Assembly (NCBI RefSeq): GCF_900090315.1
Contig: NZ_FMHZ01000002.1
Coordinates: 5,178,501-5,242,500 of the forward strand
DNA: 64,000 bases
Origin: Micromonospora citrea
Lineage (GTDB): Bacteria > Actinomycetota > Actinomycetes > Mycobacteriales > Micromonosporaceae
Direction: 5' to 3'
Part shown: positions 39,471 through 63,898 of the stretch, one piece after another
Numbering within the stretch: position 1 is the stretch's first letter
Layout: each line of letters starts with the position of its first letter
Program-made: the position numbers and the translations under genes
The notes under the pieces: generated by a model
What the model was told of the DNA's origin: nothing
Database searches by the model: none
The model's input: only the letters and a program-made list of their open reading frames with translations

Positions 39471-40041
39471 CCACCTGCTGGCGGGGCTGATCAAGCCTCT
39501 GACCTGGCTCTATCGTCGGGTGTCTATGGTCGTTGTCGGTCGACTTTGGTCGGCGTTTGACGCCCTGGCGACGCCCTGATCTTGGACTTGTTTCGCCTCG
39601 CTGGCCGGTCTGGTTGGCGGGGTTTCGTCGTGTCCGTCGGCAGGCGTCCGCGGTGCGGCTGACGGCGTCTCGCGGCTGGCCGGGGGAGCTGGTTGCCGGC
39701 GGCCGGGTGAGTCGGTGGCAAGCCAGTCCCGGGGTTGGACTGGCGCGGCAGTCGGAAGCCCCGACCCGTCGACCAGGCCGCCTCGGCGGCTTCCGTCGCG
39801 GCCTCGTCGGGCCCGGTGCTGCTGGCTGGTTCCTGGTCACCCTGGGGGCGGCGTCCCGGCGGGTGTCGGTGGCTCACCGCCCCGGCGCCGGAGGCGTCCG
39901 GGGCGGCTTGCCGCCGGCCGGGCTTGCCGGCCCCGCGCCGCGCTTGCGCGGCGCCTTGATCCATAACAGAGGAATTCGGCAAGGCCATGCGGACTGACGT
40001 GGCGGGTCTGACCAGTGCCCTCGACTGTGCCACGTCCAAGC
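39471..40041. other. Long unassigned region after rnpB
   Basis: 571 bases with no gene that I can support. Both strands have open frames of 150-170 codons but with Pro/Arg/Gly-biased translations and no family resemblance. Several short GC hairpins occur. It ends at the left border of the IS debris. Confidence 0.5.
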
Positions 40042-40260
40042 CTAGTACTCCAGCAGGGGATCCGTTTCAGGGCTCGGTGAGGGCTTGTCGGGCGTAGTGG
40101 CTGATCTTGCCTTCGGCTTGGTATTGGCGTCGGAAGATGAGTTCAGAGCGGGTCCGCACCGTGCGGTGCAGCAGGGTCTTCCCGACGCCCAGGCCCCAGG
40201 TCCGATGACGGTCCTCTGCATCTTCTTGGCCTTCGTGCGCCGGTCGACGAAATATCGCAA
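40042..40260 (-). mobile_element. IS701-like transposon end with transposase C-terminus remnant
   Basis: CTAG (40042-40045) precedes TACTCCAGCAGGG, a 13-bp terminal repeat. Reading leftwards on the minus strand ends with FRRQYQAEGKISHYARQALTEP and stop at 40067, the typical basic tail of an IS701-type DDE transposase. Upstream of that tail no transposase core remains. The right limit is not sharp, so this is a truncated copy. Confidence 0.6.
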
Positions 40261-40462
40261 GACAGGGCTGCGGAGATCGCACTACCGGCGCGGGAATATA
40301 CCAATCATGGGCCACTCCGATACGCAGTTCGAGATATTCGGTCTCCAAAGTGTGGCAGCCCCTACTCTGAAGGGCGATAGGCCGGTCGACCCTGCACGGG
40401 ATTTCCATTGCCGACTGCGGAGCGGACCGGGCTCTTGTGTGGCGGACCCATCGAGGAGAGCT
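40261..40462. other. Lower-GC intergenic part of the island
   Basis: 202 bases between the transposon remnant and the first beta-rich gene. It is clearly less GC-rich than the window (many A/T runs such as GAATATACC). I see no gene. It may hold the promoter for the two following genes. Confidence 0.4.
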
Positions 40463-40789
40463 GTGGAGAACGTTGGCAAGATTCGCCTGCATCAGAACGC
40501 GTGGGTTGTGGCAAAGCTGCAATTCACCTATTTGGATGGCGGCAAGATGATCCACACGGACGGCAGTCCTGGCGTCGCGCTAGGGAACTCGGTCACCTTG
40601 GACCCGAGTGAGTTCGGCGTGCCCGAAGGAGCGTCCGTCTCTGCGTACATTTTCGTGGTGTGGGGGAACGACAACCATGGGAAGGAAATTTTCACTATGG
40701 TTCACGGCAGTCCGAACATTGCGGACTACACCCTTGAGGGCACGACCCTGGGGAATACGCTCACGTACAACGGCATGAAGCAGAAATAA
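40463..40789 (+). CDS. Small beta-sandwich-like protein, copy A
   Basis: A 108-residue soluble protein with no signal peptide. Alternating strands: GKIRLHQNAWVVAKLQFTYLDGGK, VALGNSVTLDP, SAYIFVVWGNDN, and an ending YTLEGTTLGNTLTYNG. It is a clear paralogue of the next gene (shared NAWVVA, FVVWGND, GTTL). The strand pattern and GTTL-x-N turn recall the immunoglobulin-like domain 4 of cholesterol-dependent cytolysins, but the Trp-rich membrane loop is absent, so this is a tentative fold guess. GTG 463 has AGGAG four bases upstream. Lower GC than flanking genes suggests transfer. Confidence 0.55.
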   Translation: MENVGKIRLHQNAWVVAKLQFTYLDGGKMIHTDGSPGVALGNSVTLDPSEFGVPEGASVSAYIFVVWGNDNHGKEIFTMVHGSPNIADYTLEGTTLGNTLTYNGMKQK

Positions 40790-40821
40790 CAACGCACGGC
40801 CGATCGGGAAGGACGTTCGCC

Positions 40822-41172
40822 ATGGATTATGAGACCGTCGGCAAGATTTGTCTCCAGCAGAATGCTTGGGTTGTCGCGCGTGTCGAGTTTGTCGTTCTTC
40901 ACAATGGAGAGATGGTGCACATCAAGTGCGATACCGGTGACGTGCGACTCGGGCAAAAGATTGTCGTTGACCCAGGAAAGCAGTGCAAGATGTCCGACGG
41001 CTCGCTCATGCCCACCGGGGCGTTGTTCTCTCTGTACGTGTTCGTGGTCTGGGGAAATGACGTGCAAGCGCATGAGATCTTCAAGTATGAGTCGGGCAAT
41101 TCCCGTACGGCGAATTACACTCTGACGGGGACAACCCTCGATTCTCACCTGCAGCTCACGGGCATCAGTTGA
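40822..41172 (+). CDS. Small beta-sandwich-like protein, copy B
   Basis: A 116-residue paralogue of the preceding gene, 32 bases after it. Shared landmarks: VGKICLQQNAWVVARVEFVV, RLGQKIVVDPG, LYVFVVWGNDVQAHEIFKYE and NYTLTGTTLDSHLQLTG. It has an added loop with two extra cysteines. No signal peptide or catalytic motif. GGAAGGA sits eight bases before ATG 40822. As in copy A the fold resembles a CDC domain-4-like beta sandwich only weakly. The pair is probably co-transcribed and is bounded on both sides by transposon ends. Confidence 0.6.
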   Translation: MDYETVGKICLQQNAWVVARVEFVVLHNGEMVHIKCDTGDVRLGQKIVVDPGKQCKMSDGSLMPTGALFSLYVFVVWGNDVQAHEIFKYESGNSRTANYTLTGTTLDSHLQLTGIS

Positions 41173-41183
41173 GTTGGGAGTAG

Positions 41184-41452
41184 CTAGTACTCCAGCAGGA
41201 GATTATCTTCAGGGCTCCGTCAGGGCCTGTCGGGCGTAGTGGCTTGCTCAGGCCGACCGAAGCACGACCCGACCACGTCCATCAGCTCGTCGAACAGCCC
41301 AGACCATCGCTGGACGTCTCTGGTCTGCAGGCGGCAGCCACCGCCGAATCTTTGATCCACAGAACCACGAGACTCAGCGGTGACTGCTCCATGCCCACGG
41401 ACAAAACCGCACAGCTCCAGCAGGTCCGAACGGATCCCTGCTGGAGTACTAG
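41184..41452. mobile_element. 261-bp internally deleted IS701-like element (MITE-type)
   Basis: Terminal inverted repeats TACTCCAGCAGG (41188-41199) and CCTGCTGGAGTA (41437-41448) are bounded on both sides by CTAG (41184-41187 and 41449-41452), which looks like a 4-bp target duplication. Read on the minus strand it holds the start-like part of a transposase (VQRWSGLFDELMDVVGSCFG) and the tail SHYARQALTEP in another frame, with the middle deleted. It shares its left end with the remnant at 40042. It cannot encode an active transposase. Confidence 0.75.
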
Positions 41453-41571
41453 TCAGGACGTGCTATTGAGCTACGGAAAGAAGAGACTTGAGGTCTAGTT
41501 GTCCGAGAGCGAAGGCAATCACCGCTAAAGCGATAACCACTGCTTGCCACCGGCTTTGTAACCATACGAGG
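41453..41571. other. Lower-GC gap, nothing recognised
   Basis: 119 bases between the deleted element and the APH-like gene. A/T-rich for this genome; no gene or hairpin seen. Confidence 0.4.
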
Positions 41572-42657
41572 CTACGGTCGACGTAGCGGGCCGCGATGCG
41601 GACGGTTCGTGCCTGCTTTGAGAACGTAGAGCTCTCTGCGCGCCACCGCCTCGCCTCGTTCGTTCAGCTGGTAGCCGTCCAGCCAAGTCCACCCGCTGTA
41701 GGTATGCAGATCAGCGCGGATCTTGATGAGGCGGAAGAGGATCGGTCGCGCGAACTGGGGGCTTGCGGCGCGGGTTAGGTGCAGTACGTCACCGGCCTTC
41801 ACGTCGGCTCTTCCTGTCTCGCCAGGCCCGTAGGGTCTCGCCGAGTCCCACAGGTCCGCCAGCCAGTAGAGCGAGACCGACAGCATCCAGGCCCACCCGC
41901 GCACCCAGGTCGCCTCGTCGAACCCGAGCGCCTCCCGGTAGGCGGCCCGCGCTCGGGCATCGAACAGGCTCCAGCCCGGCCGCACCTCGACCGCCGGATC
42001 GCCGCGGCCGAGACCGCCGAAGTCGATCACCCCGACGAGCCTGCCCTGGTTCACCAGCAGGTTGCCCGCCAGGAGATCACCGTGCAGCCATACCGGCGGT
42101 CCGGGCCACTCGCCCGCCGCCATCGCCTCGTCCCACGCGGCAGTCACCGCCCGCCCGTCGATCCGGTCGCCCAGCGCCGCGATCGACCGGCGGGTCAGCT
42201 CGTCCCGCTGCACCAGTGGTACGCCGCGCTGAATCCCCTCCTTGACCGGCCCGCCCATCGGGTCGATGGCGATCATCGCGCGCACGAAGCCGGCGAGGTC
42301 GACGGCGAGGTCGACGAGGTCCTGCCCGGCTTCCGGGTTGCGCCCGGGCAGCCACGGGACGACCGTCCACGGCCACGGATAGTTTCCGCCCGGCCGGCCG
42401 ACAGCGACCGGCACCGGTACCGGCACCGGAAGGTACGGCGCCAGCCGCGGCAGCCAGGTCGCGTCGGTCGCCACCTGGTCGACCGCCCACTGCGCCCGCG
42501 GTAGCCGTGCCGTGAGGGAATCACCCAGCCGGAACAACGCGTTGTCGGTGCCGTTCGACGGCTGCCGAACGAGCGGCAGGTCCGACCATTCGGGGAACTG
42601 CTCGTCGACCAGGGCGCGTACCTGCTCGACAGTGACGACGATCTCTCCAGGGCGCAT
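41572..42657 (-). CDS. Aminoglycoside-phosphotransferase-like protein with foreign C-terminus
   Basis: A 361-residue protein. The first about 270 residues are an APH/choline-kinase-like domain: NGTDNALFRLGD, the Brenner-type WLHGDLLAGNLLV (catalytic Asp) and IDFGGLGRGDPAVEV (metal Asp). After GWAWMLSVSLYWLADLW the sequence departs from the family, which normally ends about 30 residues later. It continues for about 90 residues as HLTRAASPQFARPILFRLIKIRADLHTYSGWTWLDGYQLN, a stretch that looks like an independent small protein family. This appears to be a fusion. Substrate is unknown. The gene abuts the mobile island, so recombination is plausible. Confidence 0.7.
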   Translation of the reverse strand: MRPGEIVVTVEQVRALVDEQFPEWSDLPLVRQPSNGTDNALFRLGDSLTARLPRAQWAVDQVATDATWLPRLAPYLPVPVPVPVAVGRPGGNYPWPWTVVPWLPGRNPEAGQDLVDLAVDLAGFVRAMIAIDPMGGPVKEGIQRGVPLVQRDELTRRSIAALGDRIDGRAVTAAWDEAMAAGEWPGPPVWLHGDLLAGNLLVNQGRLVGVIDFGGLGRGDPAVEVRPGWSLFDARARAAYREALGFDEATWVRGWAWMLSVSLYWLADLWDSARPYGPGETGRADVKAGDVLHLTRAASPQFARPILFRLIKIRADLHTYSGWTWLDGYQLNERGEAVARRELYVLKAGTNRPHRGPLRRP

Positions 42658-58413: not shown

Positions 58414-59109
58414 GTGAACCGGACGGATCGTCTCTACGCACTGGTGGAGGAGCTGCGCGCCGTGTCGCCCCGGCCGCGCAGCGCCCGCTGGCTCGCCGAG
58501 CGCTTCGAGGTGAGCACCCGCACGATCGAGCGCGACATCAACGCCCTCCAGGAATCCGGCGTGCCGATCTGGGCCGAGCAGGGCCGCACGGGCGGCTACG
58601 CGCTCGACCGGGCGCGCACGCTGCCGCCGGTCAACCTGACCCCCGGCGAGGCCGTCGCCCTGGCGGTGGCGCTGCACCGGATGCGCGGCACCCCGTTCGC
58701 CGCCGCGGCCGGCTCCGCGCTGCGCAAGCTGGTCGCCGTGATGCCGGCCGCCGACGCCGCCGAGGCACACCGGCTGGCCGCGCGGGTGCACCTGATCGGC
58801 GAGGGCCCGGCGACACCCGTCCCGGCCGGCGTCGCCGACGCCGTACGCGCGGGGCGCGTGCTGCGCATCCGCTACGCCGACCGGGCGGGCGCCGGCTCGC
58901 TGCGCGACGTGGAACCGTTGGGCTACCTCGGCAACGCCCGGCACTGGTACCTGCTGGCCTGGTGCCGGTTGCGCGGCGGCATCCGGGCCTTCCGCACCGA
59001 CCGGATCAGCACGGTCACCACCCTCGGCGAGCGGGTGCCGGAGCGGGAGCTGGCTGTCGACGACCTCGACATCCCCCGGGAGCGCATCCGCCGGCTCAGC
59101 CTGGTCTGA
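58414..59109 (+). CDS. YafY-type HTH/WYL regulator
   Basis: A 231-residue regulator. The N-terminal HTH (RTDRLYALVEELRAVSPRPRSARWLAERFEVSTRTIERDINAL) is followed by QESGVPIWAEQGRTGGYALD and a WYL domain with the WYLLAWC motif near residue 180. Ligands of WYL domains are single-stranded nucleic acids or small molecules. It lies 73 bases before the NACHT gene. In other actinobacteria such regulators are paired with VOC proteins (from memory), and a VOC gene does appear just after the NACHT gene. No obvious promoter dyad was found. Confidence 0.85.
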   Translation: MNRTDRLYALVEELRAVSPRPRSARWLAERFEVSTRTIERDINALQESGVPIWAEQGRTGGYALDRARTLPPVNLTPGEAVALAVALHRMRGTPFAAAAGSALRKLVAVMPAADAAEAHRLAARVHLIGEGPATPVPAGVADAVRAGRVLRIRYADRAGAGSLRDVEPLGYLGNARHWYLLAWCRLRGGIRAFRTDRISTVTTLGERVPERELAVDDLDIPRERIRRLSLV

Positions 59110-59182
59110 GACGGGACAGCGCCGGCCGCCGGGCGCACGGCATGCTGTCCCATCTGGACGTTCCGTGGGAGGAGTCACCGAC

Positions 59183-62100
59183 GTGCCCGACACGCTCAGC
59201 TACGCCGACGCCGTACGCCTGCTCGGCGGGGAGAAGAGCAGGTTCGTCGACTGGTTCGACAGGCTGACCGGCTGGTCGCTGCTCGGCGCCTCCGCCGCCG
59301 GCGTCCCGGGCGCGCTGGGCATCTTCGACGCGAAGGCGGAGTTCGTCCGGCTCGGCCACGAGCTGGTGCGCGGCGTGGTCGAGAAGCGCTCCGGCCTGTC
59401 CCGGTACGGCCGGACGCAGCGGCTGGAGGCGGCGCACGCGGTGATCGCGGTGACCGCGTTCTTCGAGGCGCTCGACGAGATCGACCTGCCCTTCGACGTG
59501 GCGGGCGCCCGGATCGGCAAGGCCGAGCAGTTGTCGCTGGCCGGCGCGGGCGCGGTGCACGAGGCGGCTGTCACCGACGCGTTCTTCGCCACCACCGCGC
59601 CCCTGCCCGGCCCGCACCTGCCCTGTCCGGCGTTGCGGCACGCCCTGGTCGCCCACTACGACGTGCTCGTCAACCGGCTGCTGCACTTCCTGCGCGGCCT
59701 GGCCGTGTGGGAGGCCACCGACGAGGGGCGGCGACGGGCGACGGAGGAGGGGCTGCTCCGGCTGCCCGCGGCCGCCGCAGACCGGCACCGGGACCTGCTC
59801 ACCCGGCTCGCGGTCGACTTTTCCGAGGTGTCGTTCTGGATCGGCCTGCACGAGCACGAGGCGACCCGGGAGCAGGTCCGTGCCCTGTCGACGGGGCTGG
59901 CCGAGATGCGGCAGGCCCTCGCCTCGCTCTCCACCGGCCGCTCGCCCGACGACCGTCGCGCGGCGCTGGCCGCGGCGTACACGGCCGAGCTGGGGCGGCC
60001 GATCATCTCGTCCGGGGACGTGCCGGCCGGGCTGACGGTGCCCACGCTCGGCCAGGCGTACGTGCCGCCGCTGTGCCGGATCGAGGAGCTGCTCGCCGAC
60101 GCGCGGCCGAGCGACGAGGCGTGGTGGGACGAGCGGCCGCTGCGGAACGACCTGTGGCAGTCCCTGGTCGTACACCTCACCTCGCCAAACGCCGTCCGGG
60201 CCCCGCTGCTGGTGCTGGGCCAACCGGGCTCCGGGAAGTCCGTGCTGACCCGGGTCGTCGCCGCGCAGCTGCCGGCCGCCGACTTCATGGCGGTGCGGGT
60301 GGTGCTGCGGGACGTCTACGCCGCCGGGGAGCTCCAGGACCAGATCGAGCAGGCGGTCCGCAACGACACCGGCGAGCGGGTGGACTGGCCCGCGCTGTCC
60401 CGGTCGGCCGGCGACGCGCTGCCGGTCGTGCTGCTCGACGGTTTCGACGAGCTGCTCCAGGCCACCGGGGTCAGCCAGACCGACTACCTGCGCCGGGTGG
60501 CGTCCTTCCAGCGCCGAGAGGCCGACCAGGGGCGACCGGTGGCGGTGCTGGTGACCAGCCGCACCAGCGTCGCCGACCGGGCCCAGCCCCCGCCCGGCAC
60601 GGTGGCGGTGCGGCTGGAGCCGTTCGACGACGACCAGGTGAGGGCCTGGATCGCCACCTGGAACCGGGTCAACACCGTGGCGTTCCGGGCGACCGGCGGG
60701 CGGCCCCTGGAGCCGGCGACGGTGCTGGTCCACCGCGAGCTGGCCGCGCAGCCGCTGCTGCTGCTGATGCTGGCGCTCTACGACGCCGAGGGCAACGACC
60801 TGCGGTCGGCGGGCGAGCTGCGCCGGAGCGAGCTCTACGAGCGCCTGCTGCGCAGCTTCGCCCGGCGGGAGGTCGTCAAGCACCGGCCGGGCCTGTCCGA
60901 GCGGGAGCTGGGCCGGGCGACGGAGGACGAGCTTCGCAGGCTGTCGATCGTGGCGTTCGGCATGTTCAACCGGGGCGTCCAGTGGATCACCGAGAACGAC
61001 TTCGAGGCGGATCTCGCCGCGCTGCCGTTCCTGGGTAGCCGCCCGGCGCCCGTCTCGACCGACGGAAATCTCCGCACGCCGCTGCGAGCTGCCGAGATCG
61101 TTCTCGGCCGCTTCTTCTTCGTGCACCGCTCACAGGCGACGCGGGACGACACCCGATACCGGACGTACGAGTTCCTGCACGCCACCTTCGGCGAGTTCCT
61201 GATCGCCCGGACGACCGCGCTGGTGCTGGGCGACCTGGCGGCCCGGGAGGCGAGCGCCCTGCTGGGAGCCACGCCGACGGACGACGACCCGCTGCACGCC
61301 CTGCTGTCCTTCGCGGCACTGACCGGACGCACCCCGATCGTCACCTTCCTCACCGAGATCCTGACGTCCTGGGACGAGAGCCGGCGGGACGCCGTCGTCG
61401 ACATGCTGTTGCGGCTGTTCCGGGGGGTGTGCGATCGGCGACCGGCTCGGCACTTCGAGTCGTACCAGCCCCGGCGGTTGTCGGTCCCGGCACGCCACGC
61501 CCTGTACGGCGTGAACCTGCTCGTGCTGCTTCTCGCGGCGACCGGGCAGCTGCGGGGGGCCGAGCTCCATCCGGACAGCGGCGACGGGGTGTCCGGGTGG
61601 AACCGGCAGGCTCTCTTCTGGCGTTCCCAGCTCAGCTACGGCGAGTACGACAGCCTCCTGAGCGTCGTGCGGGTCAGCCGGACGTGGACGGGGACCCGAA
61701 GAGATCTCGTCCTCTCGCTCCGGGAGGGCCGGGAGGAGCCGCCCCCACCGGCGAACGATCCTCGCTGGTTCATCGCCGCAATCAGGGACGACGGCCCTGC
61801 GGAGGACGCGGAGAGCTACTACCTGACGACCGGAACCGACTTCGCCCTTCTCGCCCGGACCGCCCACTTCGAGTGCGACCCGGACCTCGACACGGCGCTG
61901 CACGCGCTGGGACCGCTGGGCGACCCGCTCGACGCGCTCGACGGCTTCTGGACGTTCACGGACGGCGATCGGTCGGAAGCCCGGCTTCTGCTCGACGTGT
62001 CGCTCCTTCCGATCCTCGGCGCGAAGGTTCCGCAGCGGGAACGGGAGCGGGCCTACGAACGCCTGCTGGCCACCGTGGACGAGGAGGACGAGGTGCCGCA

Positions 62101-62518
62101 GCCACCGGTGGCGAGGTTCGTGCTGGATCGGATCTCGACCGACCCCGAGTTGTCCGCCGAGTTCGTCGCCGATGTGCTGGGTCGTCTCCAACGGGACGCG
62201 ACGATCGTCGGCTCTCTCCTGACGTCGGCCGCCCGCTGCGTCCTCGCCTTCCTCGGCCGCGACCCGCAGACCGACCTCAGGCTGGGTGAGCAGGTCGACG
62301 GCCTGATCGCCGGCGCGCGTTGGTTCGCCGCCGCCGGCGGCCGTCGGCTCGACTGGCTGGGCATCGACACCGCGGAGCTGGTGGTCCGCACCTACGAGGC
62401 GGGCGTTCGGCGGTATCCGGTGTCGGTGGCCGAGGCGGAGAGCTTCCGCACCCGGCACGGTTCCCACCGCCCAGACCTGGTTGCGCGGATGCGTCCGCTC
62501 GCCGACCCGGCCGAATAG
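59183..62518 (+). CDS. NACHT-domain STAND NTPase (candidate anti-phage protein)
   Basis: An 1111-residue protein. Residues 1-about 230 are a helical domain starting LSYADAVRLLGGEKSRFVDWF and including GIFDAKAEFVRLGHELV and AAHAVIAVTAFFEALDEIDLP; this resembles the NNH7-type N-terminal domain of actinobacterial NACHT proteins. The NACHT core has Walker A GQPGSGKS at residues 346-353 and Walker B VVLLDGFDELL near 415, then arginine-rich LVTSRTS. Residues about 640-1111 are helical with EFLHATFGEFLIAR, a conserved NACHT winged-helix end, and no canonical repeats. Such proteins sense phage or stress and trigger cell death or arrest. GGAGGAG lies before GTG 59183. No separate effector gene is adjacent. 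Confidence 0.88.
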   Translation: MPDTLSYADAVRLLGGEKSRFVDWFDRLTGWSLLGASAAGVPGALGIFDAKAEFVRLGHELVRGVVEKRSGLSRYGRTQRLEAAHAVIAVTAFFEALDEIDLPFDVAGARIGKAEQLSLAGAGAVHEAAVTDAFFATTAPLPGPHLPCPALRHALVAHYDVLVNRLLHFLRGLAVWEATDEGRRRATEEGLLRLPAAAADRHRDLLTRLAVDFSEVSFWIGLHEHEATREQVRALSTGLAEMRQALASLSTGRSPDDRRAALAAAYTAELGRPIISSGDVPAGLTVPTLGQAYVPPLCRIEELLADARPSDEAWWDERPLRNDLWQSLVVHLTSPNAVRAPLLVLGQPGSGKSVLTRVVAAQLPAADFMAVRVVLRDVYAAGELQDQIEQAVRNDTGERVDWPALSRSAGDALPVVLLDGFDELLQATGVSQTDYLRRVASFQRREADQGRPVAVLVTSRTSVADRAQPPPGTVAVRLEPFDDDQVRAWIATWNRVNTVAFRATGGRPLEPATVLVHRELAAQPLLLLMLALYDAEGNDLRSAGELRRSELYERLLRSFARREVVKHRPGLSERELGRATEDELRRLSIVAFGMFNRGVQWITENDFEADLAALPFLGSRPAPVSTDGNLRTPLRAAEIVLGRFFFVHRSQATRDDTRYRTYEFLHATFGEFLIARTTALVLGDLAAREASALLGATPTDDDPLHALLSFAALTGRTPIVTFLTEILTSWDESRRDAVVDMLLRLFRGVCDRRPARHFESYQPRRLSVPARHALYGVNLLVLLLAATGQLRGAELHPDSGDGVSGWNRQALFWRSQLSYGEYDSLLSVVRVSRTWTGTRRDLVLSLREGREEPPPPANDPRWFIAAIRDDGPAEDAESYYLTTGTDFALLARTAHFECDPDLDTALHALGPLGDPLDALDGFWTFTDGDRSEARLLLDVSLLPILGAKVPQRERERAYERLLATVDEEDEVPQPPVARFVLDRISTDPELSAEFVADVLGRLQRDATIVGSLLTSAARCVLAFLGRDPQTDLRLGEQVDGLIAGARWFAAAGGRRLDWLGIDTAELVVRTYEAGVRRYPVSVAEAESFRTRHGSHRPDLVARMRPLADPAE

Positions 62519-62625
62519 CGGCCGGTTCGGCCGGAAACACCGACAGGACGGTGTCGTGGAGGGGGCGGAGGCTTTCTCCCGACGACGCCGGCCGAGGGGG
62601 CCGGCGTGCGAACGGGAGGCGAGAG

Positions 62626-63000
62626 ATGTCCGCGATCACCAGCGGGGTCAACTGGTTCGAGGTCGGCACCGACCGGCCGGAGGAGACCAGGCGGTTCTAC
62701 ACGGAGTTGTTCGGCTGGGCGTACGGCGAGCAGGGCACGCCCGAGGAGCCCTACCAGGTGGTCGAGCCGGGGCCGGAGGGCTCCATCCAGGGCGGGATCC
62801 GCGAGATTCGCGGGGCGGGCCCGAACTACGCGGTCTTCTACGTGCAGGTGGCCGACGTGGCGCAGACCTGCCGGCAGGCGGAGTCGGCGGGCGGCAGGGT
62901 GCTGGTGCCGGCGACAGAGAACCACAACGGGCTCACCTTCGCCCACCTGCACGACCCGGCCGGCAACCTGATCGGCGTCTACAGCCCGCCCGGGGCCTGA
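62626..63000 (+). CDS. VOC family (glyoxalase-like) protein
   Basis: A 124-residue protein with one VOC-type fold of two beta-alpha-beta-beta-beta modules: NWFEVGTDRPEETRRFYTELFGW, then FYVQVADVAQTCRQAESAGG and TFAHLHDPAGNLIGVY. Metal-ligand residues (His, Glu) typical of glyoxalases are partly absent, so activity is uncertain. GGGAGG is eight bases before ATG 62626. Co-directional with the NACHT gene, 107 bases apart. Confidence 0.85.
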   Translation: MSAITSGVNWFEVGTDRPEETRRFYTELFGWAYGEQGTPEEPYQVVEPGPEGSIQGGIREIRGAGPNYAVFYVQVADVAQTCRQAESAGGRVLVPATENHNGLTFAHLHDPAGNLIGVYSPPGA

Positions 63001-63230: not shown

Positions 63231-63701
63231 TCACCTGCCGGCCGGGCCGCCGCGACCGCCCGGGCCGGGCAGGACGCCGGCCTCGGCGGCGGCGCTGACG
63301 GCGTCCGCCTGCTCCTGGGTGAGCTTGCCGTCCTCGACGGCCTGCGCCAGGCGTTCCTTCAGCGCGGCCCGACGGTCGGCGGAGTCGCCCTTCTCGGGCC
63401 GGTCGCCCTTGTCGCCCCTACCGGGCCGGTCGGCCGGCTTGTGCTCCTCGCGCAGCTTCTTCAGCGCTGCCGTGACCTTGTCGGTGTCGACGCCCAGCTC
63501 CTTGGCCAGCTTCTCGGCGAACTCCGCCTGCCGGTCGGCCCGCTGCTGCTGGCGGTCGCCGTCCTCGGTGGTGCTGGCGCTCGGCGTCGGGGTGGCGCCG
63601 TCCGCGGCGAACGCGACCGTCGGGGCCGCGACGCCCACGCCGAGTACGCCGGCCGCGGCCAGCCCGGCCAGCAGGTGCTTCTTCCTCATCGTGCGGGACA
63701 C
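63231..63701 (-). CDS. Small secreted protein
   Basis: A 156-residue exported protein. The signal peptide is MRKKHLLAGLAAAGVLGVG ending in AFAAD. The mature part has a helical, highly charged centre (RADRQAEFAEKLAKELGVDTDKVTAALKKLREEH; RRAALKERLAQAVEDGKLTQEQADAVSAAAE), as in small secreted actinobacterial proteins with EF-hand-like or Spy-like helices. Function unknown. GTG 63701 has GGAGG upstream; ATG 63713 and ATG 63689 are possible. Confidence 0.7.
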   Translation of the reverse strand: MSRTMRKKHLLAGLAAAGVLGVGVAAPTVAFAADGATPTPSASTTEDGDRQQQRADRQAEFAEKLAKELGVDTDKVTAALKKLREEHKPADRPGRGDKGDRPEKGDSADRRAALKERLAQAVEDGKLTQEQADAVSAAAEAGVLPGPGGRGGPAGR

Positions 63702-63898
63702 GTCGTCCTCCATCTGGTCGGTGGTGGTGCGAAGACCTCACCTACAGTGACCAGTCGGGCTGGGTGGAAGCCGTGGCGAGCCTGTCAGCGAGCTGGCAAT
63801 CCGGGGCGCCCGAGCGGACAAACGGGTTGCATCGGCGCGCGGGGACGGCGAGGGTGGACGATCGGCACGGCCCCGCCGGGGCTGTAAGGTAACGGAAG

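What the first reader, a model, noticed from the sequence alone, without database searches (positions are those of the whole stretch)
59183..62518. Large stand-alone NACHT ATPase, candidate phage defence gene
The sequence shows a full NACHT core (Walker A at residues 346-353, Walker B near 415) with a helical N-terminal domain and a helical C-terminal half. NACHT proteins in bacteria (bNACHT, Avs and NNH-type proteins) are known defence factors. The N-terminal domain resembles NNH7, for which I know of no solved trigger or effector role. There is no adjacent nuclease, so the effector may be the N-terminal domain itself.
Basis: partly seen in the sequence, partly recalled or inferred. Interest (0 to 1): 0.78.

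Follow-up and report, generated by a model that had tools for sequence, protein, structure and literature searches.

The report
Stand-alone NLR-like receptor, swapped alleles
This soil bacterium (a Micromonospora) carries a one-gene relative of animal NLR immune receptors at a chromosomal site that is empty in many sister species and filled by differing, apparently exchanged versions in others, which fits an immune receptor although defence itself was not tested.

Summary
The gene is real: 1111 aa, GTG 59183 to stop 62518. It has Pfam NNH7 (E 7e-73), intact Walker A and B, and a model whose residues 256-786 match NLRP3 and NLRC4. Pfam NACHT alone scores below its cut-off, so motifs and fold carry the NACHT call.

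In 121 genomes of the genus, 22 hold an orthologue, 22 of 22 in this region, 19 exactly between the WYL and glyoxalase genes; in 61 others those two genes abut. Presence changes at least 10-12 times on the WYL tree. Flank data lose 354-409 lnL units on the gene's tree, against 9-85 on each other's (5 of those 6 comparisons are also rejected). The C-terminal domain is least conserved (36% mean identity against 77% for the nucleotide-binding part). No dedicated partner and no clear defence-island signal were found.

Best explanation: a single-protein NLR-type receptor (variable C-terminal sensor, NACHT switch, NNH7 output) acting by cell arrest or death. Defence is inferred from class and evolution, not shown. 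NNH7 has no assigned fold and lacks the HEPN motif; it carries an uncharged Gly/Ala-rich stretch compatible with membrane insertion (hypothesis). Catalogued family, untested function: a new member of a known kind.

The parts
59183..62518 (+). NNH7-NACHT protein gene, 1111 aa
   Evidence: ORF; 119 further proteins covering 82-100% of it in the list of 120 shown
59167..59174 (+). ribosome-binding-like GGGAGGAG, 8 nt before the start
   Evidence: sequence
59189..59854 (+). NNH7 domain, residues 3-224 (proposed output domain)
   Evidence: Pfam PF22738 E 7.3e-73; models
59264..59326 (+). uncharged Gly/Ala-rich stretch, residues 28-48, between two helices
   Evidence: longest stretch without D/E/K/R/H lies in residues 20-66 in 80 of 109 sequences; pLDDT under 50 at 31-55
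59945..61549 (+). NACHT module, residues about 255-789 (nucleotide-binding, HD1, winged helix, HD2)
60218..60241 (+). Walker A GQPGSGKS, residues 346-353
60425..60451 (+). Walker B VVLLDGFDE, residues 415-423
61166..61198 (+). YEFLHATFGEF, residues 662-672, near the winged-helix part
   Evidence: EFLHAT invariant in 109 sequences
61550..62515 (+). variable C-terminal domain, residues 790-1111 (proposed sensor)
   Evidence: mean pairwise identity 35.6% against 77.3% for residues 255-560 over 19 unbroken carriers
58414..59109 (+). WYL-domain regulator: left flank of the site, not a dedicated partner
   Evidence: Pfam WYL 1.5e-18; also present beside the empty site in 61 genomes
62626..63000 (+). 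glyoxalase-family gene: right flank of the site
   Evidence: Pfam 1.3e-10 on the frame 62320-62997; next to WYL in empty sites
62534..62555 (+). 22-bp conserved element GAAACACCGACAGGACGGTGTC before the glyoxalase gene; here the right boundary of the polymorphic site
   Evidence: up to 5 substitutions allowed: 61 of 61 empty sites, 16 of 18 occupied loci, 0 of 610 base shuffles; the 2 loci without it also lack the glyoxalase gene

Best explanation
A single-protein NLR-type receptor. Shown (by computation): an N-terminal helical NNH7 domain, a NACHT-HD1-WHD-HD2 module that matches animal NLR structures in the model, and a fast-diverging C-terminal domain. Inferred: the C-terminal domain senses a foreign or stress signal, probably of phage; ADP-to-ATP exchange in NACHT lets the protein oligomerise; clustering NNH7 switches on its output in cis, which arrests or kills the infected compartment of the mycelium. 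How NNH7 acts is unknown. The least bad guess is that its uncharged Gly/Ala-rich stretch inserts into the membrane when clustered (about 0.25 by itself). The gene persists as a polymorphic site: absent, or one of many alleles; the tree conflict suggests that alleles move between species by exchange limited to the gene and little else.
Against: No direct evidence of defence. No clear defence-island signal. No PADLOC or NCBIfam assignment. Pfam NACHT under its cut-off for this protein. NNH7 has no assigned fold; its hydrophobic stretch has low model confidence and could be a buried core segment, and with a 15-residue window it is the most hydrophobic part in only 49 of 109 sequences (3 of 11 distant ones). 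Patchiness and exchange also occur in non-immune accessory genes; flank genes reject each other's trees too in 5 of 6 comparisons, though by far less. In one pair of 8 NNH7 evolves faster than the C-terminal part. AlphaFold model, not an experiment; whole-chain TM-scores to the top matches are low (mostly 0.20-0.25 by query length).
Confidence: 0.6

Rival explanations
1. Adaptor or helper NLR: NNH7 only recruits a separate effector encoded elsewhere.
For: No enzymatic motif was recognised in NNH7 and no known fold; helical N-terminal domains of other NLR systems recruit partners (LypA/LypB, PMC13236601, passages read).
Against: Only one NNH7 in this genome; no neighbour family shared by most loci; 13 short NNH7 proteins found, 6 of 6 read look like truncated NNH7-NACHT, 7 not read. 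A partner with a different domain is not excluded.
Confidence: 0.17
2. STAND regulator of development or metabolism, without an immune role.
For: Metabolic neighbours such as glutamine synthetase; STAND proteins also regulate transcription (general knowledge); the 79 listed loci are from Actinomycetota, mostly genera that I recall as filamentous.
Against: No DNA-binding domain in the Pfam scan; no orthologue in 99 of 121 genus genomes, in 61 of which the flanking genes abut; variable C-terminus and tree conflict are not expected of a conserved regulator.
Confidence: 0.14
3. Allorecognition or mycelial self/non-self cell-death locus, like fungal NLR het genes.
For: One site, many divergent alleles plus a null state, apparent exchange between species. 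Fungal NLRs het-d and het-e act in incompatibility (PMC12222747, start of abstract in search listing).
Against: I know of no evidence for cytoplasmic mixing between Micromonospora mycelia (recall, not searched); phage pressure explains the same pattern; relatives in other genera are not at one site.
Confidence: 0.07

Closest known systems
Bacterial NACHT proteins bNACHT02/12 (clade 14) and bNACHT25/32 (clade 6)
   Same: Single-gene, sensor-NACHT-effector layout; clade 14 also lacks a discernible effector domain (PMC12169576, passages read).
   Different: Clade 14 has a short SNaCT C-terminus and clade 6 a PD-(D/E)XK nuclease with NCH1; here NNH7 and a C-terminal domain of about 320 aa. Defence untested here; clade placement not computed.
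Avs3 (8dgc, bound to phage terminase)
   Same: STAND NTPase; structural match E 9.2e-5.
   Different: This protein is 1111 aa against about 2000 residues in the Avs3 chain and has no nuclease domain in the Pfam scan.
Animal NLRs NLRC4, NOD2, NLRP3
   Same: NACHT-HD1-WHD-HD2 module, top structural matches.
   Different: No leucine-rich repeats listed by Pfam; N-terminal NNH7 instead of CARD or PYD.
CARD-NLR systems (LypABC)
   Same: NLR-like ATPase controlling cell lysis (PMC13236601, passages read).
   Different: Multi-gene with proteases and nuclease; here a single gene.

Membership tests
NACHT-type STAND/NLR-like protein | Walker A, Walker B with DGxDE, invariant T458/R460 | tested here: met
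   invariant or nearly so in 109 sequences; the reading of these as NACHT motifs is recalled.
NACHT-type STAND/NLR-like protein | Pfam NACHT match over the curated cut-off | tested here: not met
   17.2 bits against 26.7 for this protein; 33 of 37 relatives match at E<=0.01. This lowers the sequence-based label only.
NACHT-type STAND/NLR-like protein | Fold of NACHT-HD1-WHD-HD2 | tested here: met
NNH7 family (Pfam PF22738) | Profile match over cut-off at the N-terminus | tested here: met
   245.9 bits against 27, residues 3-224.
bNACHT anti-phage protein | Phage protection dependent on Walker A | not testable with these tools
   Needs phage challenge.
bNACHT anti-phage protein | Placement in a described clade (SNaCT, NCH1 and others) | not tested
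   No reference clade alignment at hand.
EruA (NCBIfam NF058535) | Equivalog score 1000 bits | tested here: not met
   11.6 bits.
Avs | N-terminal nuclease or other known effector domain | tested here: not met
   Pfam scan at E<=0.1 shows only NNH7 before the P-loop region.
HEPN RNase (as nature of NNH7) | Conserved R-x4-6-H | tested here: not met
   R80 of R80-x4-H85 is L or V in 12 of 14 distant members; H85 kept in 13 of 14. The HEPN motif itself is recalled.
Effector-associated adaptor domain | Same domain also on a separate partner in the genome | tested here: not met
   One NNH7 place in the own genome.
Defence-island gene | Enrichment of defence genes nearby | tested here: inconclusive
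   140 neighbours in 36 loci: 47 PADLOC families matched, none by more than 3 members; 3 each mad3, MkoA and AriA, 2 each mad6, a kinase and PD-T4-6 (25 of 47 families shown). No matched control set; PADLOC of 2023.

The most novel reading that the evidence does not exclude
The WYL-glyoxalase site of Micromonospora is an allelic NLR locus: species carry nothing or one of many divergent NNH7-NACHT receptors, and whole alleles, and to some extent N-terminal and C-terminal modules, are swapped between species. NNH7 is a new kind of membrane-inserting death effector that fires when the NACHT wheel forms, like a plant resistosome, in defence or in mycelial non-self recognition.
Probability: 0.12. 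Interest if true: 0.85.

Novelty: new member of a known kind. Interest (0 to 1): 0.5.

Why it matters
NNH7 is a catalogued N-terminal domain of bacterial NLR-like proteins for which two searches of the held library gave no functional paper. A single gene at a fixed site with natural null alleles and many divergent alleles (19 unbroken ones compared here) makes two open questions testable: what an N-terminal helical domain without a recognised activity does, and whether the variable C-terminus decides what is sensed. It also shows an NLR-like gene turning over without a clear defence-island setting, which island-based searches could miss.

Tried and rejected
HEPN RNase for NNH7: rejected, the arginine is not conserved in distant members.

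Gene remnants as proof of repeated loss: a first tblastn of the 61 empty sites gave 21 sites above the best of 610 shuffles, all at the protein's C-terminal end. This was an artefact: by a short-motif test 21 of 75 orthologous frames read into the conserved 22-bp element that 61 of 61 sites hold. After cutting at the element only G022 keeps a clear remnant: 40 aa at the C-terminal end, 97.5% identical to P0019, and 21 aa near the N-terminus, 90% identical to P0020. L160 (12 aa, 28.9 bits against a shuffle maximum of 27.3) is doubtful. Gain and loss are therefore not told apart in general. The tblastn shuffles permuted blocks of two bases; the element shuffles permuted single bases.

Rows left out: from the WYL tree 3 short rows and 1 without a WYL match; before counting empty sites L156, L159, L167 (carriers), L196 (WYL and a glyoxalase 1762 bp apart with another gene between) and L153, L154 (same genomes as L217, L218); the three broken copies from the identity and dN/dS sets; the copies on L064-L066 from the Mantel and topology tests. 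38 of 121 genus genomes (121 minus 22 minus 61) are neither carriers of an orthologue nor scored empty sites. Five of the 61 (G019, G021, G030, G063, G119) hold a distant NNH7 relative elsewhere.

Full report
OBSERVATION. The frame at 59183-62518 encodes 1111 aa with a ribosome-binding-like GGGAGGAG 8 nt before GTG 59183. The window lies in a 7.2-Mb genome at G000:C2:5178501-5242500; the nearest named relatives of the protein are from Micromonospora, so the host is taken as a Micromonospora. Pfam gives NNH7 for residues 3-224 (E 7.3e-73); the P-loop region matches AAA at 1.4e-4 and NACHT at 0.0049, the latter below its curated cut-off. Among 37 aligned relatives NACHT is matched by 33 at E<=0.01.

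DOMAIN EVOLUTION. Over 19 unbroken carriers (171 pairs) mean identity is 64% for NNH7, 77% for 255-560, 62% for 561-789 and 36% for 790-1111. In 8 compared pairs dN/dS (NG86) is below 1 in every domain; NACHT (336-690) has 0.09-0.30, lower than NNH7 (0.19-0.51) and the C-terminal part (691-1111, 0.28-0.56) in 8 of 8; in one pair the linker is 0.01 lower than NACHT, and in one pair NNH7 exceeds the C-terminal part. The family is under purifying selection, and its C-terminal end is the most variable part, as expected for a sensor; that function is inferred.

NNH7. Across 134 aligned sequences including 14 distant ones, A10, A83, P142, A198 and E215 are kept in 14 of 14 distant members, H85 in 13 and R77 in 12, while R80 is kept in only 2, so the HEPN R-x4-6-H motif is not met. 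In 80 of 109 sequences the longest stretch of the whole protein without charged residues or histidine lies at residues 20-66, and in 62 and 58 of 109 the most hydrophobic window of 19 and 23 residues lies at 22-65, against a 4% share of length; with a 15-residue window it is 49 of 109, and 3 of 11 distant members. Share of length is a crude control. The stretch could be a membrane-active hairpin or a buried core; the model does not decide. NNH7 occurs once in this genome. A search for short NNH7 proteins found 13 (162-461 aa); the 6 read look like truncated or frame-shifted NNH7-NACHT proteins, three of them reaching past Walker A; the other 7 were not read.

DISTRIBUTION. NNH7 is found in 4 of 296 genomes sampled across the phylum (one is the own genome, one is below the cut-off), and in 135 of 300 of the family, with up to 7 matches per genome. 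Thirty-four of 121 genomes of the genus match this protein; 22 of them, the own genome included, carry an orthologue (at least 58% identity over the best stretch), the other 12 only distant or partial matches. No phage record of 50,697 matches and 4 of 72,556 plasmid records do, one of them 11.85 Mb long.

SITE. All 22 genus orthologues stand in the same region, between the glnA side and the gene at 63231-63713 or with at least one of these flanks. In 19 of 22 the gene is exactly between WYL and glyoxalase; in G099 it follows the glyoxalase, and G071 and G081 lack WYL, glyoxalase and the element. A Plantactinospora (L111), a Micromonosporaceae bacterium (L075) and Micromonospora sp. HM5-17 (L077) share the region with slightly different gene order and without a called WYL gene. 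In 61 other genomes WYL and glyoxalase are 91-412 bp apart. A 22-bp element with an inverted repeat (ACACCG...CGGTGT) stands 60-87 bp before the glyoxalase match in 61 of 61 empty sites, in 16 of 18 occupied loci and in the three further ones, and once in this genome; the two loci without it have no glyoxalase there. It belongs to the glyoxalase side, not to the NACHT gene, and it misled a first search for remnants (see Tried and rejected). One genome, G022, holds a decayed remnant of the gene with pieces of both ends, and 3 of 22 copies have frame breaks, in draft assemblies for two of the three (460 and 530 contigs).

TURNOVER. On a tree of the WYL gene (77 rows, 17 carriers) presence changes at least 12 times, 10 forced by well-supported branches; shuffled labels average 15.5, and 6 of 500 shuffles are as low, so presence is only weakly clustered. 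Among 16 carriers, pairwise identity of NACHT and of the C-terminal part is uncorrelated with identity of four flanking proteins (Mantel r -0.04 and -0.13; NNH7 0.16, p 0.17), while NACHT and C-terminal part correlate (0.70, p 0.001) and NNH7 correlates weakly with both (0.33, p 0.018; 0.17, p 0.04); flank identities span only 90-99%. Topology tests agree: NACHT data reject the flank tree by 604 lnL units (p-AU 1.2e-4) and the flank data reject the NACHT tree by 715. As a control, three sets of flanking genes, including the immediate neighbours on both sides, were compared: on each other's trees they lose 9-85 units and share 7-9 of 13 splits, but 354-409 on the NACHT tree, sharing 3-4 splits; NACHT data lose 599-625 on the flank trees. 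Against a simple reading, 5 of the 6 flank-against-flank comparisons are rejected too (p-AU 0.0001-0.006; not rejected: one, 0.275), so recombination or error affects the region in general; the NACHT conflict is several times larger on the same data. NNH7 data reject the NACHT tree by 52 units (p-AU 5e-5), a hint of mosaic alleles. Alleles thus appear to be exchanged between species in place; unequal rates or hidden paralogy at one site are less likely but not excluded.

CONTEXT. In 37 loci of other genera (a part of the 79) a co-directional gene lies within 60 bp upstream in 5 and downstream in 2 (own gene caller), and no neighbour family is shared by most loci (the largest besides the gene itself, a loose cluster, is in 19 of 79). 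Of 140 neighbours in 36 loci, 47 PADLOC families are matched, none by more than 3 proteins (3 each mad3, MkoA, AriA; 2 each mad6 and PD-T4-6); the commonest Pfam families are TetR regulators (8), transporter components (5) and MFS (4), with 3 MafB19-like deaminase and 3 AAA_21 matches. There was no matched control, so this shows no clear defence-island signal rather than its absence. The genome holds 8 further places matching NACHT at E<=0.001, 6 over the cut-off.

INTERPRETATION. The layout equals that described for bacterial NACHT proteins: C-terminal sensor, NACHT switch, N-terminal effector (PMC12169576, outline and passages read). What is shown here is the layout, the fold match, the selection pattern and the turnover. 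Sensing, oligomerisation and killing are inferred from the class. The call that it is an NLR-like protein is near certain; that it is a defence gene I put at about 0.6; the membrane model of NNH7 at about 0.25.

NOVELTY. The family is catalogued (Pfam NNH7; database names 'NACHT domain-containing protein'). A search for 'NNH7' in the held library found 2 unrelated papers, and 'NACHT' with 'NNH', 'bacteria' and 'defense' found 3, of which the 2 listed are unrelated. To my knowledge, and within those searches, the new parts are the polymorphic site, the apparent exchange of alleles and the uncharged stretch in NNH7; the site and exchange were not searched for in print separately.

Noticed in passing
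window 62534-62555: GAAACACCGACAGGACGGTGTC, an inverted-repeat element 60-87 bp before the glyoxalase match in 61 of 61 empty sites, found once in this genome with up to 3 mismatches; possibly an operator (of the neighbouring WYL regulator?) or promoter.
   Followed up: partly
L063 (G022), between WYL and glyoxalase: Decayed remnant of the NACHT gene with pieces of both its N-terminal and C-terminal ends: an internal deletion.
   Followed up: yes
L042 (G099), L046 (G071), L049 (G081): Exceptions to the site: the NACHT gene follows the glyoxalase in G099; G071 and G081 have the gene but lack WYL, element and glyoxalase.
   Followed up: partly
G000:C2, 8 places (L221-L228): The genome has several other NACHT-matching places, 6 of 8 over Pfam's cut-off, while NNH7 is found only in the window's gene.
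   Followed up: no
L079, L099, L149: Two NACHT-family genes of the query's cluster near each other in one locus (Actinoplanes utahensis, Asanoa hainanensis, Streptomyces spiroverticillatus), suggesting local duplication.
   Followed up: no
window 40001-42000: G+C drops to 0.60 against 0.69-0.80 in the other 2-kb blocks; only one gene called between 38781 and 43301; possibly acquired DNA.
   Followed up: no
family search, genus codes g226 and g241: Large genomes (mostly 8-12 Mb) of the family carry up to 7 NNH7 matches: a receptor repertoire worth study.
   Followed up: no
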